In this document: positions 5,866 through 63,800 of the stretch, in pieces
Position numbering within the stretch: position 1 is the first letter of the stretch
Layout of the letters: the number at the start of each line of letters is the position of its first letter
Assembly (NCBI GenBank): GCA_022605405.1
Contig: JABYQQ010000004.1
Location: forward strand, 310,001 to 374,000
Direction of reading: 5' to 3'
From: Earliella scabrosa
Lineage: Eukaryota; Basidiomycota; Agaricomycetes; Polyporales; Polyporaceae
DNA length: 64,000 nucleotides
Translations under genes and position numbers: made by a program
The notes under the pieces: generated by a model
The model's input: only the letters and a program-made list of their open reading frames with translations
What the model was told of the DNA's origin: nothing
Databases searched by the model: none

Positions 5866-7222
5866 CTTGTCTAGACATAGTGGCACGCGAGTACTGTATG
5901 TCGTGGATTGCCAGTGACTTGAGTTCCCGCCCACGCACATGACATGAAAGTTAACCCATCTCCCCTGAGTCGCCCGTCTCCAATGCCTCACATGGTTTCT
6001 CTATCCACTACTTTCCAACCGTTTGTGTTGAATCTTCAGTTACACTTTGCATTTTTGTACAATGTCTACGTAGGGCCTTAGGCCAGCAATACAGGGAATA
6101 GCAGCAACTCAGTCCGCGGCGGCGTACACGCTTACTCGGAGGTACAAGGAGTCGGCTATGGTGACCTCTGCTCAGTGCCGTGATTACGCACACACGACAT
6201 CCGAGCCTGAGCTCTGCTCGAGAGCCCTCAATTGGGGCGCACCCGCTCCGCTCCGAGCACCCCGCCGCGCAAGTTTGAGCTTTGACTATGGACAGCTCGC
6301 GAGACAGGCACTCCTCACACACAGAGACGCAGCTGCAGATGGGAGTGTACACGACGACGAGACAAGTAGCGAGGGGACAAGCAGAGATGAGAGATCATCC
6401 AGGAAAGCAAAGCGCAGACGTAGGGCAACAACTGCTCGACAGCGGAGAACTACACGTATGGGGAGCAACAGGACAGGCGAGGGATAGGTGGCAGGGGAAG
6501 ACGAGACAATTCATAGAAGGAGGTAAGTACGATGGTATGCCAGGCAGTGGAGGCTGTGCCACCACAGTGTACTTGATCGGGAGCCCGGGCCGAAAGTGAG
6601 CACGTTAACGCCCGCAACCGCTGTGTTCGAAGGAGGTTCGAAGGTTGCAAGTTGAACTCAGCGGGCGTCCTTAGTCCACCACTCCGTCCACGACGACACG
6701 CCGCGTCCTCAGCGACCCATTGTTCCTTTGTGTAAGTCAGCGTCTGGATTGATGGGCATGCGGCTGGCTGACTCGTCCACAGACCAAGTACCGCGACGCG
6801 CGTCCATTTCCACTCAGCCGGAGGATTGCCACGGCCACCGCGGTAGGTCCGTGCTAACATCATCGTGGCTCAGTACTTATCGGGAAAACAAAGCTACCCT
6901 AATTCTTGATAGATCAACCCCCTAGTTACATCGCACTGGTACGTGGTCGATCTAGTACCTCTCGTCTCTCACCGTGTCTAACCACCCTGGTGGCTCTCTC
7001 GACGCCGTCTCCAACCCTTTCCTTGATCCGGACCCCCATCGCTTCCATGCAGTCCCCTTTGGCGAGGCTTACGAGAGCCTTCAAGCTGAAGAACCCGCGC
7101 CAGAGTCGAAGCTATCATCGCACTCAACCCCCGCTAAGCTTACGCTCTCCGGCACCAATCACTTCGCCTACCGTCGGAAGCTAGGAAGAGCTCGCGGACC
7201 AAGTCTTGTGAATCAAACCGGG
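5866..7222. other. Intergenic, FunK1 copy 2 to copy 3
   Basis: About 1.36 kb with only short unrelated open frames. An open frame runs upstream of the chosen copy 3 start but has only a GTG at its beginning. An extra 5' exon for copy 3 cannot be excluded. Confidence 0.45.
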
Positions 7223-51667: not shown

Positions 51668-53809
51668 ATGTTCATGCTCTCTTCCTTCCGCCGCCTGTCG
51701 TTGCTCGTCGTTGCAGCGTTGGCCTCCGGTAGCTTGGCTGCCATCGGCCCCGTCGCTGACCTGGCTCTCGTGAACGGGAAAGTCACTCCTGACGGCTTCA
51801 CTCGTGATGCGGTCCTCGCCGGTAACACCTTCCCTGGACCGCTCATCACAGGGAACAAGGTCGGTTTCTACGTCCATATATTGCCTTCTCCGCCTCACGT
51901 TTCCGCGCGCATAGGGCGACAACTTCAAGATCAATGTAGTGGACCAGCTGACGAACGAGACCATGCTCACCGCTACGTCTATTGTCAGTGTCTCTTCACC
52001 GTTCGGAACGAGGTTTTGCATAACTGATGAACTTGCGACAGCACTGGCATGGCATGTTCCAGCGCGGGACCAACTGGGCGGATGGCGGCGCCTTCGTCAA
52101 CCAATGTCCAATTGTTTCTGGCAACTCGTTCCTCTATGACTTCAGTGCGACCGACCAAGCTGGTAAGATCCTCGCAAATGGCGGCGGATGTGATGCTCAC
52201 ATTAGGACAGGAACGTACTGGTACCATAGCCATCTCTCTACCCAGTACTGCGATGGATTGCGCGGCCCTATGGTTGTTTATGACCAGCAGGACCCCCACG
52301 CGGCCCTCTACGATGTTGATGACGGTTCGTATAGTACACTGTGTAGGCATACTCAGGGCTGATCCCGATGTCTTCACAGAAAGTACGATCATCACCCTGG
52401 CTGACTGGTACCACACTGCTGCCCGTTTGGGTGGCAGACGGCCTGACTCGACCCTCATCAACGGTCTGGGTCGTTACTTTGGAAATCCCACGTCAGAGCT
52501 CGCGGTCATTAACGTCACGCCTGGGAAACGGTGCGTCGCGGCTCTGTTAGGCTGAGGACACGGGCTAACATAGCATGGCTCCCAGCTACCGATTCCGCCT
52601 CGTCAGCCTGTCTTGCGACCCCAACTACACGTTCGAGATCGATGGGCACGGCATGACTATCATCGAGACGGACGGACAATACACCGAGCCGCTGCCCGTG
52701 ACACAGCTTCAAATATTTGCCGGACAGCGCTACTCCTTCGTGGTATGTTCCAGGATCCAGCGTCTCACAGCCCTAGCATTGATGATGATATTGTTGAAGT
52801 TGGAAGCGAACCAGACGGTCGGAAATTACTGGATCCGTGCGAACCCGAACCTCATCGCCACAGGCGGCTCTGGATTCGCAAACGGTATCAACTCTGCTAT
52901 CCTCCGGTACGACGGAGCCCCGGACGCGGAGCCTACTTCCACCCAGAACGCAAGCCCCATCGTCCTTCAGGAGTTCAACATGCATCCTCTAACTGATCCC
53001 GCCGCTGTGAGTTATCTGCATCTCGTGTTTCGCTGTATAAGCCAAGCTGACTGGAAATGTGATACGTAGCCTGACGACAACGTCATGCCCATGACCCTCC
53101 AGGTCGGCTTCGTATGTATCCCCCACTCACGCTGATTGATTGTCGGTCTGACACTGCCATAGGCGGCCGGCAGCTTCACCATCAACGGCACCTCCTTCGT
53201 CAACCCCGATGTCCCGGTCCTCCTTCAGATTCTGAGCGGTGCTCAAGACGCACGAGATCTCCTTCCTCCGGGCAGCGTATACGGTCTTCCGGGGAACGCG
53301 ACCATCGAGCTTACCATCCCCGCTTTTGCTATCGGCGGGCCTCATCCTATCCATCTCCACGGCGTAAGCAATACCTACAGCTCTTGTTTCCGTCCCCATT
53401 GCTCATAATTGTCTGTAGCACGCGTTCTCTGTGGTTCGGAGCGCTGGCCAGACCACTAAGAACTTGGTCAACCCCGTCCGCCGCGACGTCGTGAGCATTG
53501 GATCCGGCAGCGATCAGGTCACGATCCGCTTCAGGGTGAGCACGATATGCTTCCCCAACTTCTGTACATTTTGATACGATTCTTTCAGACCGACAACCCC
53601 GGACCGTGGTTCCTCCATTGCCACATCGACTTCCACCTCGATGCTGGCTTCGCCATCGTCTTTGCGGAGGATGTTGCCCAGACTTCGGTCACAAACCCCG
53701 TCCCTCGTGAGTATTCATATGTTCTCCGGTCTGCGAGCCCCACTGACCGCGATGTGCAGAGGCTTGGTCGGAGCTGTGCCCTGAGTACATGGCCTCTTTG
53801 CAGGCATAA
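51668..53809 (+). CDS. lcc: Laccase (multicopper oxidase, secreted)
   Basis: Twelve exons: 51668-51859, 51915-51983, 52042-52162, 52211-52324, 52380-52530, 52586-52742, 52800-53006, 53070-53111, 53163-53363, 53419-53535, 53589-53706 and 53760-53809 (512 residues, the usual length). A signal peptide covers about residues 1-24, followed by the mature start [13 protein letters not shown]. All four copper motifs are intact: HWHG (L1), [20 protein letters not shown] (L2), HPIHLHGH (L3) and [15 protein letters not shown] (L4). The residue in the axial position of the type 1 copper is Phe, as in high-potential polypore laccases, and the substrate Asp in LADWYH is present. It oxidises phenols and lignin-derived compounds with O2 outside the cell. 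Exon 7 uses the acceptor just before LEANQTV. Confidence 0.95.
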
Positions 53810-54151
53810 GCTTCGGGCTGCTGGACGATAGGATAGTCATATTATTCACGGATCATAATCAAGAATTTCTTCATATGGCGGTATTTTATTGCTGTAATCT
53901 CCCCTAAAACTACAATTCATCATGCTGAACACCTGTCCCTCCTCACCGTGACCTGTCCTTCCTAGAAGCCGTCTTCTGGCAGACGGGGAGGAGTTTGTTT
54001 ATCAAGGACGCAACGCTACTGACAAAGATGATAACTCAAGAGCGTAAGTACAAGCGAGAGCAGCCAACACAACACGACGATATCAACCTGGAAGACGTCT
54101 TAGCAGCGGACGGTGGACGATCACGATCGCGTTGCTTACCTGGGCAACTGG
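53810..54151. other. Intergenic, convergent 3' flanks
   Basis: About 340 bp, laccase 3' UTR; nothing else seen. Confidence 0.5.
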
Positions 54152-54620
54152 TCATCCCCCAATCCGCTTGAACTGGTGATACCCCTCCTTTGCGACGGAG
54201 ACAGCGTCGTACACGAACCGTTCCGGAGCCAATTCAGTCCGATCGCGCAGGCGCCATCGAAGGGATATACCATTAAAGTTTGCGTGAAGTGCTTGAAAGT
54301 TAACGAGGGCATCCTTAGCAGACACGCGTTTGCCGGGATCCGCGTGTTTCATCGCGTCTACTGGGGATCGCAGCTTGGGCTCGAGTAACTCTGGGTAGTA
54401 CGCCTACATGCCGGAAAAATTCGGTGAAAGAAACACGTGCTTCCACTAACTCTCCTGCATACATGTCGCGCAACCCGTAGACATCAACCTTGAAGGCGTC
54501 GTAGGGGACGGTGGAGGATAGCTCCAGGACCTGCTGATTACGCCCTTTCCTACCTAGAAGCATAGGTTTCTCTCCTTTCTTGAACCGATGGGAGATCCCG
54601 AAGTCGATATAGAAGTACCA
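54152..54620 (-). pseudogene. Protein kinase remnant, module copy A
   Basis: Only the last two exons of a kinase related to 55062-56475 and 58660-59992 remain. The upstream piece reads VWYFYIDFGISHRFKKGEK, GRKGRNQ and SSTVPYDAFKVDVYGL. The last exon (about 54152-54400) reads SPVDAMKHADPGKRVSAKDA, APERFVYDAV and EGYHQFKRIGG and has no stop. The catalytic loop (HRD) and ATP lysine are gone; upstream of about 54620 the frame is lost. No TM-protein partner is found next to it. Confidence 0.75.
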
Positions 54621-55061
54621 GACGGGCTGCGCTCATGTCTTTCACGGTTGAGAGTGCCAGCGGTCATAGCGCGATCGTGTCCACACATCTTAAAGCTTGA
54701 GTTCCCGGTGATGTCTGGCCACCACAGCTGAGCGTGCATATCATGGGCCCTTCATGTTGTAGTGATCATTGCGCGGACTTGGGTTCAGCGTAGGAAGTGA
54801 TTGCACAAATTCTGAGATTGCCCGGCTATTAAGGGGATCAGCAATGAATCAACTTGGTACTCTCACCATACGCAGAGTGAGCTAGATGGGGGCGACGACG
54901 CTGACAGAGACGTTCTAACACACAGCTATTGCGAAAGCTACGAACGTACCGAGAAAGACTATACAGCACTATCGAAAGCAGAGCGTACTAAATCACGCTA
55001 GTCAGGCCACGCGAATGAAGTGAGGTCGGACAAGACCTACTAGACATTTCAACCCACCCCA
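54621..55061. other. Intergenic
   Basis: About 440 bp between the kinase remnant and kinase B. Degraded upstream kinase sequence may be included; no gene. Confidence 0.45.
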
Positions 55062-56475
55062 TTATCCCATGAAGCGCTTCAGGTGATATATCCCCTGTCG
55101 TGTCACGTCCACCACGCCGTACACGACACGCTCAGGCGTGGACTCCGCCCGTGGTGACAGTCGCCATCTAAGGGAAGAGTTGGCCACAGTGCTTCGAATA
55201 TCGCGGAACTTGACCAAGGCGCCTTCTGCGGATACTCTGGTTCCCGGATCACGTTCCCTCATCGCATTGACAAGGGGGTCCAGGAAAGCGAGCCCGTGAA
55301 ATCTCTTCACATATCTGTCGTCGAAACCATCATACCGTACGGATGGTGGATGTAAGGCGTACCTGAGTAAACTCCTTGTAATACAGATCTCCGAGAGCGT
55401 AGACGTCGACTTTGAAGGCATCATACGGTATTGTCGCTGAAAGCTCTGGCACGCTTTGGTTTCTTCCTCGAAGTCCCACGAGCATAGTCGAAGATCTGTC
55501 TGTAAACCGATGTGATATTCCAAAGTCGATGAAGAAGTAGCGGACTGGATGGTCGAGTCGAGCTAGGGGTGTGACTTCGCGCACGTTGTCGATGGAGTAT
55601 TTCAATCGGATTGGATGATGTCCATGAGGATACAGGGTTTGAGCATCCATCATGATATTCTGGGGCGCTATATCCCTGCACGTTGTCAAGTGTCCGCTGA
55701 TATGCTGCAAGGGGTCGCTATCCCGTAGAAAGTGGTACTCACCGGTGTGCGACACCTTGTGAGTGCAAAAAGACGAGACCCTAAGCAGACATGAGCGTAC
55801 AGTTGTGGTGCAAATGTCGAAACATACCTCCAGTGTCTGTTCGACGAAGTCAACGACCTCCTCGATAGCAGAGAATGGTGGATTGTTCATGGGGCGTAGG
55901 TAAGGTGTAACCACGAAAGAGAGGTTTGAGTCCGCGATGTCGTCCGGTATCACGTCAAGAACAGGAACACAGTGATTATGGGAATGCTGGACCCTGGTGA
56001 GAAACTGAGAAATCTCGATCTCAAGGCTCCCTTTCTCAACGGTCTTCAAGCAGACTAGGGTGTTGTCCTTCAGTCGTTTCGCGTCTAGGACGTGCGGTCT
56101 CTGTTGAGTCATTTCAGAGAGAATCTTAAAGAGGACTATGTCACAACTCACGTTGATGACGACCGAGTCTTCGCAGTAAGTCGGGTCCCGATTGGTGCCT
56201 TTCCATGACGGGGACCAGCTGGGGTGATAACGTGGTCGTAGGAGGTACCCGTGTTTGTGGAACATCCAGTAGCGGTCTCTCCAGAACACCTCAGCATCCA
56301 GCAGGTCATACGTTCCCTGCTCTGTCAGTGTAGCGTAGCCTGCAACATCTTCTGGAGATAGGTACGCATAGGCGGGCAGTGACTTGTCTTCATCCATGCC
56401 AGCCTCGATCCGAATCAAGGGGGTGTGATACTGAGCGAGCCTCAGTCTTAGTGACGTAAAAGGAGTTGAAGGCAT
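55062..56475 (-). CDS. Protein kinase B of the divergent kinase/TM module
   Basis: Five exons on minus: 56475-56152, 56100-55828, 55780-55743, 55675-55363 and 55304-55062 (396 residues). An alternative start is the ATG at 56397, nearer to the start used in kinase C. The N-terminus reads LPAYAYLSPEDVAGYATLTEQ and WRDRYWMFHKHGYLLRPRYHP. The kinase core has LVCLKTVEK (ATP lysine), EIEISQFL (helix C Glu), PYLRPMNNPPF hinge, GLVFLHSQGVAHRDIAPQN (catalytic Asp split by an intron) and FFIDFGISHRF (DFG). YDAFKVDVYALGDLYYKEF and DPGTRVSAEGALV close the C-lobe. All catalytic residues are present, so it should be active. The family is annotated only as kinase-like in agaricomycetes. It is divergent from the TM gene at 56908. 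Confidence 0.85.
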
Positions 56476-56907
56476 AACTCAACTTTACCCTCGAGGATGA
56501 ACGAAGAAACTGTGCTTGTAGCTCGTAGGTAGCTCGCAAACCATGTTCAAGTGCTGGAGGCGGCAAGGCGGCAGAAAGCTCGATCCACGTGGGCTTCCCC
56601 TTTATAGACTATGAGCGCCTGTCTTCCGTTTTGCACAGCCCAACCTCAACGTTGCGTCCGCGCTGCGCCGCTGACCCTGCCGTGATTTGCATTTCGACCT
56701 ATGAACCCAGCACGCCTCATGGATCAATTGCCTCGTGCATTGAGTATGCTTGTGCGACCTAAAAGCACGTATCTCGCAAGTGTTTGGGCCTTCCTGGGGC
56801 CTTCCCTGACTCTCGTCTTGTGCCACTCTCACCCTCCACAACCGTTCCTCTTCCTAAACAGCTAGAATTACTGTGCTATTATCACTTCACTGGTGGTTGC
56901 TGCAGAA
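56476..56907. promoter_or_regulatory. Divergent promoter of module B
   Basis: 432 bp between kinase B and TM protein 1. A C/T-rich run precedes the TM gene ATG. It holds the conserved 19 bp block at 56708-56726. Confidence 0.55.
56708..56726 (+). promoter_or_regulatory. Conserved block CAGCACGCCTCATGGATCA
   Basis: Differs from 60321-60339 at only two of 19 bases and lies at nearly the same distance (182 versus 178 bp) before the TM gene ATG. The flanking sequence is much less alike. Confidence 0.6.
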
Positions 56908-58003
56908 ATGGCGACTCCTTACGATGTGCTAGGCGTCGTCTCACTGGTGCTCGCGATCCTCACAACCATACCGTTGGTCCGTTGGATCAACGGCAAACTC
57001 CCCAACTCGCGCTTGACGTACTTCGATGAGATTGTAAGCGGCACAGAGACGCTGCTGCTTTCTCTCGAAGAAGACGAGATATTCTCGAAACCCGAAACCG
57101 CGGCTTACTACCGACAGAGGCTACGTAGGTCAGTCGCGCTCCAATATCTGCTATAGAACTCTGGCCGATCCTCTTCGTGCCTCAGAGTATGCGAGGACGC
57201 CAAACAGCCTAGATGGTCGACATACCAGGCCACGACGACTATGAAGCAGCTACGCGGACTGTTCTCCGGTCTGTCGAAGAAGCTTGCGGATCTGTGCGAT
57301 GAAGCGCTGGAGTTGCGGGCCGAGATCTCTGTACGCAACACCGTATAGTGTCTTGGTATGGTGCTGACTCCCTTGGTCCCAGACCACCGCGACCGACGAA
57401 CGTAAACGGCTGCTCGCAGAAGGCTCCTTCGAGCAGCCTTCCGAGGAGAAATACGGTGCGTGTCGCGGATCTCTACTCCCGATACCCCATGAGCTGATCG
57501 TACCAGCCATACCGTTTCCGAGAACCCAGTGCTCGCTGGCCGTCAAAGTGGCACGGTCTTTCTCCGCCATACTTCCACGAGTTCATTCCGCTACTACTCG
57601 TAGCGACTCGAATCCCTCATGTTTGCCTGAAGTCAAAGGCAATGCGGAACCAGTGCTCCCAACTATAGCTCCCCACGCCAGCCCCCATCGTAGTATTGCT
57701 GGTGCTCCTGATGCTTCTCCATGCAAGAAGAGACATCACACAGATCGATTCATTCGTCGGAGCAAGCGATTCAACACGACTCGCCGCTACTTCTCGCCGT
57801 CCATAGCCCAGATGGAGTACACCAAGCCGGGCGTGCTACGGAACGAGGAATTCAGGCGTGCGCTCCGCTCGCGCACAGTGGACAGCGTCTCGTCCACAGC
57901 CACTCTTGTCTCAGATGATGCGTCTCCTTTACCCGACGTGGGCGTGCTGGGAGCTGGTGCAGACGCGGACCTGCATCGTAGTCTGACACTCAGCTCTCTT
58001 TGA
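56908..58003 (+). CDS. Single-TM protein 1 of the kinase/TM module
   Basis: Exons 56908-57128, 57186-57330, 57383-57455 and 57582-58003 (286 residues, phases consistent). An N-terminal hydrophobic helix (VLGVVSLVLAILTTIPLVRW, about residues 6-25) is followed by RLTYFDEIVSGTETLLLSLE and the helical KQLRGLFSGLSKKLADLCDE with LELRAEIS. The tail is disordered and holds the basic conserved motif KKRHHTDRFIRRSKR and then YFSPSIAQMEYTKPGVLRNE. It looks like an endomembrane or plasma-membrane protein with a cytosolic helical region and basic tail. No known family recognised. Paralogue of 60517-61687 with the same four-exon structure; exon 2 is 145 bp in both. Divergent from kinase B. Confidence 0.8.
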
Positions 58004-58659
58004 TATACAGATCGGGTGATATTCTACCCATTCTCTTTGTCGTCGCGTCAATGGGCGCGCTGTCTAACATGCTACATCATCCTCATATTTAGCATCACAT
58101 GTTGCCTCTCTGTATGCTCCCGCATGATACTCTTCGGACGTCTCCTCGCTCGATATGCTTGTTGTATGTAACGTGGACTGTGATCTTTATTACCTGGTGC
58201 ACGCCTTCTCCAGGATCCTGGCACGCGTACAGATCACTGAATAGAGAAGCGGAGGAAGACGAAGTGTGCCAGCACTCTGTTCCACAAGTCGAGGGTCCGC
58301 ACTTGATGTGCCTACGGGTGTACACACCAAGGCTTAAAGAAAGCACCACAGGCATATACATACCTTTGTCCACGGAGACATGCTTCATGCGAACGGAGAT
58401 GGTCACTTGGGCCTGTTCAGCCACTTTCTTCTCGTCTCCTCATATCTTTCGCCCGCTCCTATAGGGGAAGCTAAGTTCCGGGTACAGGTCGAACGTCGGC
58501 GGGGGACGGGAACTTGAACAACGATCGCATACAATACGACAACAATCGAGAGCTGTGTATAACGGTAGCAAATGAGAGCACTCCACACCAACTATAGCTC
58601 TGTCTCAACACAACGGGATAGACGTAGCACACAAAGGAGGAACTCACAGATATAGTAGG
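58004..58659. other. Intergenic, convergent 3' flanks
   Basis: About 650 bp between module B and kinase C; nothing recognised. Confidence 0.5.
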
Positions 58660-59992
58660 TCAGCCCATAACCCGCTTCAAGAGGTTGTATCCCTCCCTGG
58701 CGACAGCCATGGTACCGTAAACGAAGCGCTCTGGAGTCGTCTCCGTTTGGGCGCGCAGCCTGGAACGTGAGGACTTGCTGCCGACGTTCCTTGCCAGTAT
58801 GTCTTGCAGCATGGCCACCGCGCCCTCCGCAGTCGGCCTCTCGGATGGGTCGACGCACTTCATCGCACTGACGAGTGGTTCCAGGAAGTCGAGGCCGTAG
58901 AATTTCTAGACGATTCAGCGGTCACTCGAACAGGTGTGCATGGCATGGAGGGACAGTACCTGCATGAACTCCTTCGAGAAGACGTCTCCGAGGGCGTAGA
59001 CGTCGACTTTGAAGGCGTCGTATGATTTGGTAGACGACAGCTCCGGGACGTCCTGATTCCGCCCCCTCCGACCAAGGAGCATCGGAGAGGAACCTTCGGG
59101 AAAGCGGTGCGATATACCGAAATCGATGAAGTAGTAGCGTACCGGGTTGTCGATTCGAGCTAGAGGATGAAGTTCGCAGACGTTGTCGACAGAGTAGTCC
59201 AACTGGACCGGATGATGTCCTTGTGGATACAGAGGACGGCCATCCATCATAATGTTGGGCGCAGCAATGTCTCTGATAGTAATCGTTTGATGGAAGGTCG
59301 GAAGGTCGGACGCACGATGCGAAGTTGGTTCCTTACCTGTGAGATATCCTTTGCGAGTGTAGAAAACAGAGACCCTACAGAATTCTTAGTAGGTCTCAGT
59401 GGCAATCAAAACATCGCTTACATCAAGAGTTTGCGTTATGAAGTCGACGACCTCTCCGACCGCGCCAAAAGGTGGACTGTTCATTGGACGGAGATACGGC
59501 ATCACCATAAAGGACATGTTGACGTCGAACGGGTCCGGGATGACCTCGAGGAGTGGGACACAGTGGTTTCTTGCGTTCTCGATAGTTGATAGATACTGAG
59601 ATATTTGAATTTCCTGGCTATGTGACTTTGCACGCTTGAGTGTAACCAGCAGGCCGTCTCGTTGACGAGTTGCATCGATTACATGTGGGCGCTGACAAGG
59701 GACCATGAGTCAGCTAGCTACCAGTTGTCTGCAGCCATGGACGCACGTCTATCATGACTGAGTCTTCGCAATGCAAAGGATCCAGATTCGTGCCCAGCCA
59801 AGACGGCTTCCAGTCTGGATGATACCGGGGTCGCAATCTATACCCCCAGGCCTCTAGCTCCTTGTACCGGTCTTTCCAGAAGATCTCAGCGTTAATGAGA
59901 TTGTATGTTCCGCGTCGAGTAATCTCAGCATATATGTCAGCTTGTTCTGGGGAGACATGTGCATATGCTGGCAGAGGTCGGGTCGTAGTCAT
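58660..59992 (-). CDS. Protein kinase C of the divergent kinase/TM module
   Basis: Five exons on minus: 59992-59747, 59691-59422, 59374-59337, 59272-58960 and 58905-58660 (370 residues). Exons 3 and 4 are 38 and 313 bp, identical in length to kinase B. Start ATG 59992 (MTTTRPLPAYAH). The core reads LLVTLKRAK (ATP lysine), EIQISQYL, PYLRPMNSPPF, then GLCFLHSQRISHRDIAAPN across an intron, YFIDFGISHRF and YDAFKVDVYALGDVFSKEF. The end is PERFVYGTMAVAREGYNLLKRVMG. All catalytic residues are present. It is head to head with TM protein 2 and was duplicated together with it. Substrate unknown; the TM partner is a candidate. Confidence 0.85.
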
Positions 59993-60516
59993 TGAAGGCG
60001 TCCGGATGTACTGCAAAACCGTATAATTAGCTAACACATGACAAGTCCTACCTGTTATGAGGCAGTACAGCAGCATATAGATATCTACCTCAGAGAGAAA
60101 GACGACCGTGCCGAGAGACGTTCACAAGAGGGAGTGGTAGTCAAACAGACGCAACTTCAAGGTTGCTTCCTGGTTTGGAGGCGAACGCCCGGGCGTAACG
60201 CACGTGTTGTCGAGACGCCCGATTAGGCAATAACGTACCGCACATCGTACTCACCGCCACTCATCCTCTGTGAGGTTCTGGGCCGGGTCACGCAGTACGT
60301 GTTGCTGGCCAACCCCTTCAGCGCGCCTCGTGGATCAGAGGTATGCCTTGAGGCTTCAGAGTGTTTTTGAGGGTATAAGCAGGGAGCTGCTCGCCACTCA
60401 TTCACCCCTCCTCGGCTCTTCCCCACCACTTTCTCCACATCCCCAGCCTGCAGAGCCTTGCCACCACTGCCCATCTACCATTTCTTGTAGTCCCAGCGCA
60501 CACTCTGAGAGGTATA
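59993..60516. promoter_or_regulatory. Divergent promoter of module C
   Basis: 524 bp between kinase C and TM protein 2, with a C/T-rich run before the plus ATG. A possible short intron (GTAGGA ... TTGCAG) lies in the kinase 5' leader near 60005-60050. Confidence 0.5.
60321..60339 (+). promoter_or_regulatory. Conserved block CAGCGCGCCTCGTGGATCA
   Basis: Partner of 56708-56726, 17 of 19 bases identical, 178 bp before the TM gene ATG. Confidence 0.6.
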
Positions 60517-61687
60517 ATGCCGTTTGTGCTTGAGCTATTGGGGTTCATTCTCTCGATCGCTGGCATTATCGGGATCATTGCGACTATTTTGGACTGGATC
60601 CGAGGCATTCTACCCACTGCCCGGCTCCAGTACTTTGATCAAATCATAATCGAGACAGAGGGCTTTCTCCAGGCACTTGGAGAAGACAAGATCTTCTCTA
60701 ATCCGGAGACTCTCGTACACTTTCGGGAGAGACTTTCCACGTACGTCACGGCGCCAGTGATCCTTTTGTCCTGGGGTATACTGTTATGCTCACCGTTCTA
60801 CACAGCGTGCGCGACATGGCTGAACCTCATAGATGGGCTACATACTGCGCAACGTCTACCATGCAGCAGGTTGCTGGTCTATTCAATGGACTGTCGAGCA
60901 ACTTGTCCAAGCTCTGCAACGAGGCAGTGCGACTAAGGGCAGAGATATCGGTATGTGCACACCCCACCATCCCTTGGCTCTTCGCCGACTGGCAGTCTGG
61001 ACAGACTACTGCGACATCCGAACGAGATGCTCTACAGAGCGACGACCATGTCGACGCGCCGGCTGCGACCGAGTCCCCTCAACGCCCTGCAACTCATAGT
61101 GTCGAGCGTGAGCCCTCACTGGATGCGCAGACTGGTACGTGACATGCACGTCTCTATATATCCCATCCCCTCTGACCGTCTCCGCTTCAGGGACAACAAT
61201 ATGTCCAAACCCTGCGCATGTTGATACTACTCCGTGTGCTGTCGTCCCACCTCCCCCGTCACACCCGCCGGATCGGGTCGGAGTCGCACAGAAGAAACGA
61301 CACCACACCGAGCAGTTCCTCCGTCGGAGCAGACGCATCCTTACATCGCGCTCCGATCTCTCCCGTCCCCTCGCCCAATTAGAGCACAGCAAGTGCGGCA
61401 TCACACGCACCGCCGAGTTCAGACGCGTCGCACGCTGTCTCACGGATGACAGCGTCGCGTCGTCCTCCACCTGCGTCTCCGACTATGACCCGATGGATCC
61501 CGGCGCGCGCCTCTCGTCCGACAGTGCGGACGAGGACGAGGGCTCTCCGCCGATCACCAAAGATCAGATCTTACCCACCTCGCACCATCGTGCGTCCAAG
61601 AGCAATACTCAGAGGCGGCCGTGGCTCCCGCCATGGTTACCTTGGCCTATCCCTGTGCGGGGCTTACATCCCAACCGCGCTGCATAG
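60517..61687 (+). CDS. Single-TM protein 2 of the kinase/TM module
   Basis: Exons 60517-60740, 60806-60950, 61005-61134 and 61191-61687 (331 residues). The N-terminal membrane helix is LLGFILSIAGIIGIIATILDW, then RLQYFDQIIIETEGFLQALG, EPHRWATYCATSTMQQVAG, LFNGLSSNLSKLCNEAVRL and RAEIS. The tail has the conserved KKRHHTEQFLRRSRR motif and SRPLAQLEHSKCGITRTAEF, then an acidic serine-rich part and a Trp/Pro-rich end (RRPWLPPWLPWPIP) that TM protein 1 lacks. All four exon boundaries agree with TM protein 1. No known family. It is divergent from kinase C. Confidence 0.8.
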
Positions 61688-62323: not shown

Positions 62324-63800
62324 TTAGCCACGGCCGCCACAGCTACCCTGACCCGACCACGTCCCCTGGGTTGGAGGATTGCCCCAACCACCCCTCCCAC
62401 CTCTCCAACCCCATTGATTCGGCGCACCTTGAGGGTCCGGGCCCCACCCGCCCTGGCACGGCCCATTTCCCCACTGCGCGCGCGCGCCCGGCCTCCCCAT
62501 CCCCCTCCCCCTCCCCATCCCCATGCTAGCCGCCGCACCCGCCTGATCAAGGTGCGTATCGACCATCTTCTCGATATTCTTGGCTTGCGTCTCGACATAC
62601 TGGCCAAACGCCTTCCCCTGCGTCTCGAACAGCCGCCCAAGAGCCTTGAAGAATCCCCCCACGGGCGCGGGCTCCTCGACGCGGTCGAGGCCGCTGATGC
62701 CGACAAGGACCTTGCCGTGCTTCGTGCGGACGAGGCAGCGGTCGCTCGGATCGTCAGCCATCTGGTTGATCGGCTTTGTGGGGATAACGGGGGGCTGAGA
62801 AGGGGAGGCGCTGCAGACGACGACGGTCTCGCGGTCCGAGGCGCGCAGCGTGCGCGTGCGCGCGGCGAAGGCGGGGAGGAACTGCACGGAGTTGCTGCAC
62901 CGGGTGTTGAAGACGAGCGGGCCCTCGAACGTCGGCGGAAGGAGGACGACGATCTTGCCTGTTGGGGACATTAGGAGGCGCGCGGTGAATAGCGTGCGGC
63001 AGGCGGGTACGCACCATGCTGTGTTTCGACGTGGAGGTCGAGGCTGCGCCCGGGCTGGACGTCGTGCTGTCAAGGTCGCGATCAGCGACTGCGGAGGAAT
63101 GGCGAGACAGGTGGACAGGATGTGTACGTACCACGTCAATGTTGATGCGCCCGTGATTGCTCGACGCTATGATCCGTGCGGGCACCCTCTCGCCGGGCTG
63201 AGGGGGCTGCTGCGCGACGACCTCGATGTCGAGGTTCATAGCGCCATGGCGGGTGCGGAAAGTGGCGTTGATGTCTGTCTTGGTCGAGCTCTTGCCCCAC
63301 ACGTTGTCGCGTTTCCGACGTAGCCGCCTGGCTATACTGAGAGACGGTGTAGGCAGGCGGGGATCTACGAGGAACGTTCCTGGATAGCACGATTGGGTTC
63401 AGCGGCGGATGAATTGTAACGGATGGGTCATGAACAGTAGTCGGGCACTTCGACCGCCGGATACTCCGGCTGTATACGGAAGCGAGACATACCTGAGATA
63501 GCATCATGTTTGGAGAAGAGCTCAAAGTGGTTGACTGTCTGAGCGTTCGCGGGTCGGAAGACAGAAGTAGGAGTTCCGCTCTGAGGAGGTGGAGGCGATT
63601 GAACCCTACTCGAGCTAGGGCGAGGAGAGTAGGGTGGAGGCTCGTCCGTAGGGTGCTGTGATGCGTACTTTGATGAATAGCCCATCCTTTGTACCACGTA
63701 CCACAATTATTGCTTGACGTACCTGATCGCCAGTGTCCTTCATCGGTACAGGAGGTGCTTTCAGCTCCTCAAACGGTGTGTCCGGGTTACTGATGATCAT
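62324..63800 (-). CDS. DUF7330-type protein with RGG/Trp-rich tail
   Basis: ATG 63800 (MIISNPDTPFEELKAPPVPM). Several exons; the exact junctions near 63720, 63495-63380, 63130 and 62990 are approximate. The proline/serine-rich N-terminus (PPPYSPRPSSSRVQSPPPP) is followed by HFELFSKHDAISG, GTFLVDPRLPTPS, RTRHGAMNLDIEV, then ASSNHGRINIDV, LDLHVETQHGKIVVLLPPTF, GPLVFNTRCSNSVQFLP and VRTKHGKVLVGISGLD. These are repeated short beta segments with HG/NG turns, as in the DUF7330 domain of basidiomycetes. A helix (FGQYVETQAKNIEKMVDTHL) and a Gly/Arg/Trp/Gln-rich tail (GRGRGMGRPGAR, GWRGGRGGWG) end the protein. Function unknown; the tail suggests RNA or protein contacts. Confidence 0.65.

What the first reader, a model, noticed from the sequence alone, without database searches (positions are those of the whole stretch)
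54152..61687. Duplicated divergent kinase / single-TM protein module, possibly an undescribed signalling pair
Seen: kinase B (minus) with TM1 (plus) and kinase C (minus) with TM2 (plus) are two head-to-head pairs in tandem. Exon boundaries agree within each family (kinase exons of 38 and 313 bp identical; TM exon 2 is 145 bp in both). Both kinases keep the ATP lysine, HRD and DFG. The TM proteins share a membrane helix, a helical ELRAEIS region and a basic KKRHHT motif. Inference: duplication and maintenance as a pair suggests a kinase and its membrane-bound partner or substrate.
Basis: partly seen in the sequence, partly recalled or inferred. Interest (0 to 1): 0.82.

Follow-up and report, generated by a model that had tools for sequence, protein, structure and literature searches.

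The report
Kinase genes with head-to-head partners
In this wood-decay mushroom, genes of one unusual kinase family often sit head to head with a small partner gene of one of two unnamed families, a pattern that suggests, without proving it, that kinase and partner work together.

Summary
The window, from a genome whose TM1 protein is identical to an Earliella scabrosa protein, carries two head-to-head pairs, KB/TM1 and KC/TM2, with exactly the exon lengths quoted. A third, 3'-truncated kinase (54152-54632) is unpaired.

The pairing reaches beyond the window. The TM family also faces both C2 paralogues and, on weaker evidence, one C5 kinase: five of five TM genes found. A second family (N), not shown to be related and without a membrane helix, faces four C1 kinases: four of four found. 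Of 33 kinases read, 9 have a partner (5 TM, 4 N) and 24 have none detected. In Lentinus tigrinus a TM3/4-type protein and a C2-type kinase lie on contigs of identical length.

The partners match no Pfam family. TM proteins are predicted N-out/C-in single-pass proteins with a helical bundle and a disordered tail; purifying selection acts on them. Kinases keep catalytic residues but show no glycine loop.

A recurrent inherited kinase-partner module is supported. That the partner holds, or is phosphorylated by, its kinase is inference (0.5). Expression, binding and adjacency in other species were not testable.

The parts
55062..56397 (-). Kinase KB, 370 aa; exons 56397-56152, 56100-55828, 55780-55743, 55675-55363, 55304-55062
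   Evidence: Gene model with GT-AG introns; 100% identical to P0006 over the local alignment
56398..56907 (.). 510-bp region between the KB and TM1 start codons (presumed shared promoter)
   Evidence: promoter function is inference
56908..58003 (+). Partner TM1, 311 aa; exons 56908-57128, 57186-57330, 57383-57455, 57507-58003
   Evidence: Gene model, identical to P0001, C8Q76DRAFT_715004 Earliella scabrosa
58660..59992 (-). Kinase KC, 370 aa; exons 59992-59747, 59691-59422, 59374-59337, 59272-58960, 58905-58660
   Evidence: Gene model; PF00069 at 8.1e-10; no identical protein among the 120 rows listed of 1072
59993..60516 (.). 524-bp region between the KC and TM2 start codons (presumed shared promoter)
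   Evidence: promoter function is inference
60517..61687 (+). Partner TM2, 331 aa; exons 60517-60740, 60806-60950, 61005-61134, 61191-61687
   Evidence: Gene model; no identical protein returned
56708..56726 (+). 19-bp element, 17 of 19 identical to 60319-60337, about 199 bp before the TM1 start codon
   Evidence: E 0.29, weak except for the matched position
60319..60337 (+). Counterpart 19-bp element, about 197 bp before the TM2 start codon
54152..54632 (-). 3'-truncated third kinase fragment, unpaired; not part of the module
   Evidence: profile positions 228-370 only

Best explanation
This is one case of a recurrent two-gene module: a soluble, probably active but divergent protein kinase and a small helical partner transcribed away from a shared intergenic region of about 0.5-0.8 kb. 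In the window's clade the partner is a single-pass membrane protein lying N-out/C-in, with a helical bundle and a long disordered tail in the cytosol, where it would tether its own kinase and/or be its substrate. In part of the C1 clade the place is taken by another, non-membrane partner (N). Shown: gene structures, head-to-head order at nine kinases, purifying selection on kinases and TM genes, conserved catalytic residues, conserved tail blocks, same-length contigs in Lentinus tigrinus. Predicted: topology, fold, disorder. Inferred: shared promoter, co-expression, binding, phosphorylation, membrane role.
For: Five of five TM genes and four of four N genes are divergent from a kinase. N came out of a position-blind comparison of the non-kinase frames of the kinase loci (read properly only). 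Start-codon gaps are similar: 510 and 524 bp in the window, about 500-800 bp for the other TM pairs as sliced, 500-628 bp for N measured to the kinase profile start. Whole-genome searches with seven TM-family members and two N members found no other convincing copy. All 4 kinases of the KB/KC/C2 clade are TM-paired. TM exon 2 is 145 bp in four of five models, 139 in the fifth; N exon 2 is 103 bp in three of four. NG86 dN/dS: KD/KE 0.147/2.0, TM3/TM4 0.306/1.73, TM1/TM2 0.534/3.06. Charge after the hydrophobic helix exceeds that before it in 7 of 7 TM-family proteins. TM1 residues 1-134 are predicted helical, block pLDDT 73-95. Lentinus P0004 and P0014 share a contig length. Kinase and TM-partner distances correlate, r 0.88, reached by 5 of 720 relabellings. 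No membrane segment in 118 of 120 kinase relatives.
Against: 24 of 33 kinases read show neither partner. Linkage may descend from ancestral neighbourhoods. TM5 stood at E 0.66 before it was added to the profile and rests on architecture. TM and N were not shown to be related (hhalign probability 0.3-0.6%), so one common mechanism is assumed. Intergenic regions of the C4 pairs share only short words with C2 and C5. Tail Ser/Thr content is 16-20% in the six full-length TM proteins, and the TM2 tail has no net charge. No expression, interaction or phosphosite data; glycine loop not recognisable.
Confidence: 0.5

Rival explanations
1. Linkage by descent only: neighbours were duplicated together and nothing separated them; they share no function.
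For: The TM pairs are related by duplication, with roughly congruent trees. 24 of 33 kinases have neither partner.
Against: Synonymous divergence is high or saturated, so the adjacency is old; it survives at three places, with a MITE-like inverted repeat inserted in one intergenic region, and on same-length contigs in Lentinus. TM genes are under purifying selection. A second family holds the same position beside other kinases, which one ancestral neighbourhood does not explain unless N and TM are very distant relatives.
Confidence: 0.2
2. Co-regulated but not touching: a bidirectional promoter turns both genes on together and they act at different steps.
For: Head-to-head order with gaps of about 0.5-0.8 kb at nine kinases; a 17/19 element at matched positions in the two window pairs.
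Against: The element is weak (E 0.29) and not found at that position in the C2 and C5 pairs. No expression data.
Confidence: 0.18
3. Cell-death or nonself module: the TM protein is a membrane-disrupting executor of the HeLo/MLKL type held or triggered by the kinase, as RIPK3 triggers MLKL (recalled analogy).
Against: No HeLo, HeLo-like, Goodbye or MLKL row in Pfam for eight TM-family sequences, two of them partial. No Foldseek match at E 0.001. The Z rows lie in the range the tool calls common for helical bundles, and the best ones leave helix 1 out. The N partners have no membrane helix. NLR genes nearby were not looked for.
Confidence: 0.08

Closest known systems
Protein kinase superfamily, Pfam PF00069
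   Same: KC matches at 8.1e-10; Lys, Glu, Asp, Asn, DFG and PE in 32 of 33 members read.
   Different: No recognisable glycine loop; the Pfam match starts at profile position 96; a conserved family-specific N-terminus (RPRY.P.W.PSW region) precedes it.
Kinase-like proteins of Polyporales (unnamed expanded family)
   Same: 1072 relatives at E 1e-20 or better; the named ones among the 120 listed are from genera such as Trametes, Lentinus, Fomes, Daedaleopsis (that all are Polyporales is partly recalled).
   Different: The names shown mention no partner gene.
FslK, fungi-specific kinases near tyrosine kinases (PMC3937382; abstract, part 1 of Results, section 9 read)
   Same: Expanded in Agaricomycetes; most members have no other domain; PF07714 is listed for many of our relatives.
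   Different: FslK are said to hold all kinase subdomains, ours show no glycine loop. No FslK sequence was compared. No partner gene in the parts read.
HeLo / HeLo-like / basidiomycete MLKL-like domains (PMC9815663, passages)
   Same: N-terminal helix and helical bundle; basidiomycetes; expanded.
   Different: No profile match; predicted as hydrophobic helix plus bundle with a long disordered tail; kinase is a separate gene.

Membership tests
Protein kinase superfamily | Catalytic Lys, Glu, Asp, Asn, DFG, PE | tested here: met
   32 of 33 members; L025_p3769 lost Asp, Asn and DFG
Protein kinase superfamily | Glycine-rich loop | tested here: inconclusive
   No GxGxxG seen in KB, KC, KD, KE; no structure of the kinase made
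FunK1 (Pfam profile; name recalled) | Match to the Pfam profile | tested here: not met
   Not listed for KC up to E 10
FslK (PMC3937382) | Falls in the FslK clade next to tyrosine kinases | not tested
   No FslK sequence fetched; PF07714 scored 21.5 bits for KC, below its cut-off of 23.1
HeLo / HeLo-like / Goodbye-like / MLKL_NTD | Match to a Pfam profile of the group | tested here: not met
   No such row up to E 10 for TM1, TM2, P0003 (=TM3), TM4, TM5, P0004, P0005, P0002
HeLo / HeLo-like / Goodbye-like / MLKL_NTD | Four-helix bundle fold | tested here: inconclusive
   TM1 residues 1-134 helical; no Foldseek hit at E 0.001; VIA rows in the common range
Single-pass membrane protein (TM family) | One hydrophobic helix with more positive charge on one side | tested here: met
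   Hydropathy 1.62-2.65 and more positive charge after it in 7 of 7; insertion itself not shown
Single-pass membrane protein (N family) | One hydrophobic helix | tested here: not met
   Maximum 19-residue hydropathy 0.58-1.52 in four models, of which N3 and N4 are incomplete
RIPK3-MLKL-like pair (recalled) | Executor carries a pseudokinase domain in the same chain | tested here: not met
   No kinase domain in the TM proteins
RIPK3-MLKL-like pair (recalled) | Kinase phosphorylates the executor | not testable with these tools
   No proteomic data

The most novel reading that the evidence does not exclude
A previously unnamed modular signalling or defence system of polypore fungi: each clade of one expanded kinase family has its own head-to-head, fast-evolving partner (membrane-bound TM or soluble N), and matched phosphorylation of the partner switches a response such as regulated cell death or self/nonself control.
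Probability: 0.1. Interest if true: 0.85.

Novelty: new variant of a known kind. Interest (0 to 1): 0.55.

Why it matters
A kinase family with 1072 relatives at E 1e-20 or better has no substrate or input named in the titles and abstract starts that my ten searches listed. Two partner families in the same head-to-head place give concrete candidates, with nine natural pairs to test specificity by swapping. None of the partners tested matches a Pfam profile above its cut-off, and TM2, TM4 and TM5 were not returned as public proteins, so annotation may hide more pairs.

Tried and rejected
Misreading mended: I first took the shared non-kinase frames (59 of its 65 matches shown) for kinase ends and local duplications. 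On re-check four of them proved to be the N family, each divergent from a C1 kinase. This raised the functional reading from 0.45 to 0.5, lowered linkage-by-descent from 0.25 to 0.2 and the cell-death reading from 0.1 to 0.08. Other rows are kinase C-terminal exons, duplications on C5 and between the two C2 loci, or overlapping frames.

Fusion of kinase and TM partner: none of the 120 listed kinase relatives matched the partner profile (best E 2.8). Two of 120 carry a hydrophobic segment of their own (P0043, P0063; possibly gene-model errors).

Unpaired TM copies: whole-genome searches gave seven weak places: C15 (E 0.109), C3 (0.16), C16 (0.034), C23 (0.134), and C11, C1 and C7 (0.899 each). 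C15, C16 and C23 were scanned; C16 gave one 26-residue match to the exon-1 profile at E 0.0038, without a hydrophobic helix in its 36-residue frame, which I rejected. C3, C11, C1 and C7 were not read. These searches miss distant subfamilies (the TM1 query missed TM3-TM5), and profile scans covered kinase loci, the window and three extra loci only. Frames cut at the joins of 10-kb pieces may be missed.

N and TM as one family: hhalign probability 0.3-0.6%, E 0.09-0.21, so not claimed. A further weak N match (E 1.8) lies 677 bp upstream of kinase L029_p6848, not counted. My third N3 exon ran into a stop and was dropped from the argument.

Structure: only generic helical matches. The P0004 model (mean pLDDT 49.8) was too weak to search.

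Literature: ten searches listed no paper that by title or start of abstract describes such a pair.
Full report
What is in the window. Kinase KB (minus, 56397-55062) faces TM1 (plus, 56908-58003), and kinase KC (minus, 59992-58660) faces TM2 (plus, 60517-61687); all introns are GT-AG. The quoted exon lengths are exact. TM1 is letter for letter a protein named from Earliella scabrosa, a polypore, and KB equals P0006 over the local alignment. KC and TM2 were not returned as public proteins (120 of 1072 rows seen). The finding's left edge, 54152, belongs to a kinase fragment covering profile positions 228-370 only. A 300-nt repeat spaced 3597 bp fits tandem duplication of the pair.

The TM pair elsewhere in the genome. 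The kinase family has clusters on C1, C2, C4 and C5. I fetched 16 stretches, 15 around kinases. A profile of TM1 and TM2 alone found TM-like exons divergent from both C2 kinases (E 2.5e-6 and 3.3e-5) and a weak candidate (E 0.66) in the same geometry beside one C5 kinase. Models TM3, TM4 and TM5 share the hydrophobic helix, LP, GLS and intron positions; exon 2 is 145, 145 and 139 bp. TM3 equals public protein P0003. The C2 kinases KD and KE have the same 38- and 313-bp exons.

A second partner family. N1 to N4 share a PW...YH..KG core (two-by-two profiles match at E 2.4e-7) and a 103-bp second exon in three of four. All four are divergent from a C1 kinase, with start codons 500-628 bp from the kinase profile start. 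Genome searches with N1 and N4 returned only these four places. The N proteins have no membrane helix and no Pfam match over a cut-off (N1, N2, N4); N3 and N4 models are incomplete. Relation to the TM family was not shown.

Counts. Of 35 kinase hits, two partial ones (the window fragment and L030) were dropped before the tree, leaving 33. TM partners: 4 of 4 in the clade of KB, KC, KD and KE, 1 of 8 on C5, 0 of 21 on C1. N partners: 4 of 21 on C1. So 9 of 33 are paired and 24 of 33 show neither family. Conversely, 9 of 9 partner genes found are head to head with a kinase. Seven TM-family queries over the genome gave only the five TM loci and seven weak places, three of them read and rejected. 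The random-region control could not be fetched.

Other species. The protein database holds a TM3/4-type protein of Lentinus tigrinus (P0004) and TM1-type pieces from unnamed sources (P0005, P0002). The best-scoring Lentinus kinase, P0014, groups with KD and KE and is listed with a longest contig of 431,750 bp, as is P0004. That this value marks a contig is borne out in Earliella, where P0003 and P0007 carry 3,668,086, the length of C2. This suggests linkage, not distance or orientation. Four other Lentinus kinases listed lie on contigs of 426,790 (three) and 517,297 bp (one). In Daedaleopsis nitida a KC-type and a KB-type kinase share a contig length of 253,519 bp, so the tandem may be older than that split.

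Selection and co-inheritance. NG86 dN/dS is 0.147/2.0 for KD/KE, 0.306/1.73 for TM3/TM4 and 0.534/3.06 for TM1/TM2; KB/KC has dN 0.30 with dS saturated. Codon-bootstrap 95% ranges of the ratio are, for KD/KE, TM3/TM4, TM1/TM2 and KB/KC, 0.04-0.12, 0.10-0.26, 0.11-0.37 and 0.05-0.16, from 179, 197, 115 and only 10 usable replicates of 200, because dS saturates. TM dN is about twice kinase dN. For six TM pairs including Lentinus the trees agree except for one node (46% support), and distances correlate with r 0.88, reached by 5 of 720 relabellings; co-duplication alone would also give this. Selection on N was not measured.

What the proteins look like. The kinases keep Lys, Glu, Asp, Asn, DFG and PE in 32 of 33 members (the residue before Asp is split by an intron and was read only in spliced models) and show no glycine loop. 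118 of 120 relatives lack a hydrophobic segment. TM proteins have no Pfam family, and TM1 has no solved relative by sequence. Each TM protein has one hydrophobic stretch with more positive charge after it in 7 of 7, which by the positive-inside rule (recalled) puts the rest in the cytosol. AlphaFold2 makes residues 1-134 of TM1 helical and confident and the rest disordered (five sequences). The top structural rows are designed three-helix coils on residues 23-124, a range the tool warns is common. Tails differ by subfamily: a basic block with conserved Ser/Thr in TM1, TM2 and P0002, and an H.V.QV.LPV end in TM3, TM4 and P0004.

Reading. A soluble kinase that recurrently faces a small helical partner, membrane-bound in one clade and soluble in another, is most simply a kinase with its own adaptor or substrate; in the window the adaptor would hold it at a membrane. 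I give this 0.5. Rivals are linkage by descent (0.2), co-regulation without contact (0.18) and a cell-death executor (0.08).

Standing against what is known. The kinases belong to an expanded, unnamed group of kinase-like proteins; FslK membership (PMC3937382, parts read) was not tested. Ten literature searches listed no description of the pair. I call it a new variant of a known kind: a known enzyme class with undescribed, co-inherited partners.

Noticed in passing
window 54152-54632 (-): A third kinase fragment holding only the 3' part; over 91 nt it is 77% identical to KC and 63% to KB.
   Followed up: partly
C1 start codons at about 2347254 (+), 2351042 (+), 2525755 (-), 2549552 (-): The N family: four small genes, each divergent from a C1 kinase; a fifth weak match (E 1.8) upstream of L029_p6848.
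   Followed up: partly
L016 about 6469-6807 (between kinase KD and TM3): Two 70-nt inverted-repeat arms, 90% identical, about 200 nt apart: a MITE-like insertion in the shared intergenic region (799 bp as sliced, versus 498 in the sister pair).
   Followed up: partly
P0063 (Fomes fomentarius) and P0043 (Trametes sanguinea): Two of 120 kinase relatives carry a C-terminal hydrophobic segment: a membrane anchor in the same chain, or a gene-model error.
   Followed up: partly
L025 3769-4992 (C1): One kinase paralogue has lost the catalytic Asp, Asn and DFG and has a long branch: likely pseudokinase or pseudogene.
   Followed up: no
L019 1978-3313 and 6015-7198 (C5): A non-kinase segment duplicated beside the C5 kinases, about 81-100% identical per matched frame.
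   Followed up: no
window 52569-53831 (+): Multicopper oxidase exons (PF00394, PF07731), probably a laccase-type gene.
   Followed up: partly
window 62324-63163 (-): A frame with a DUF7330 match below its cut-off follows TM2.
   Followed up: no
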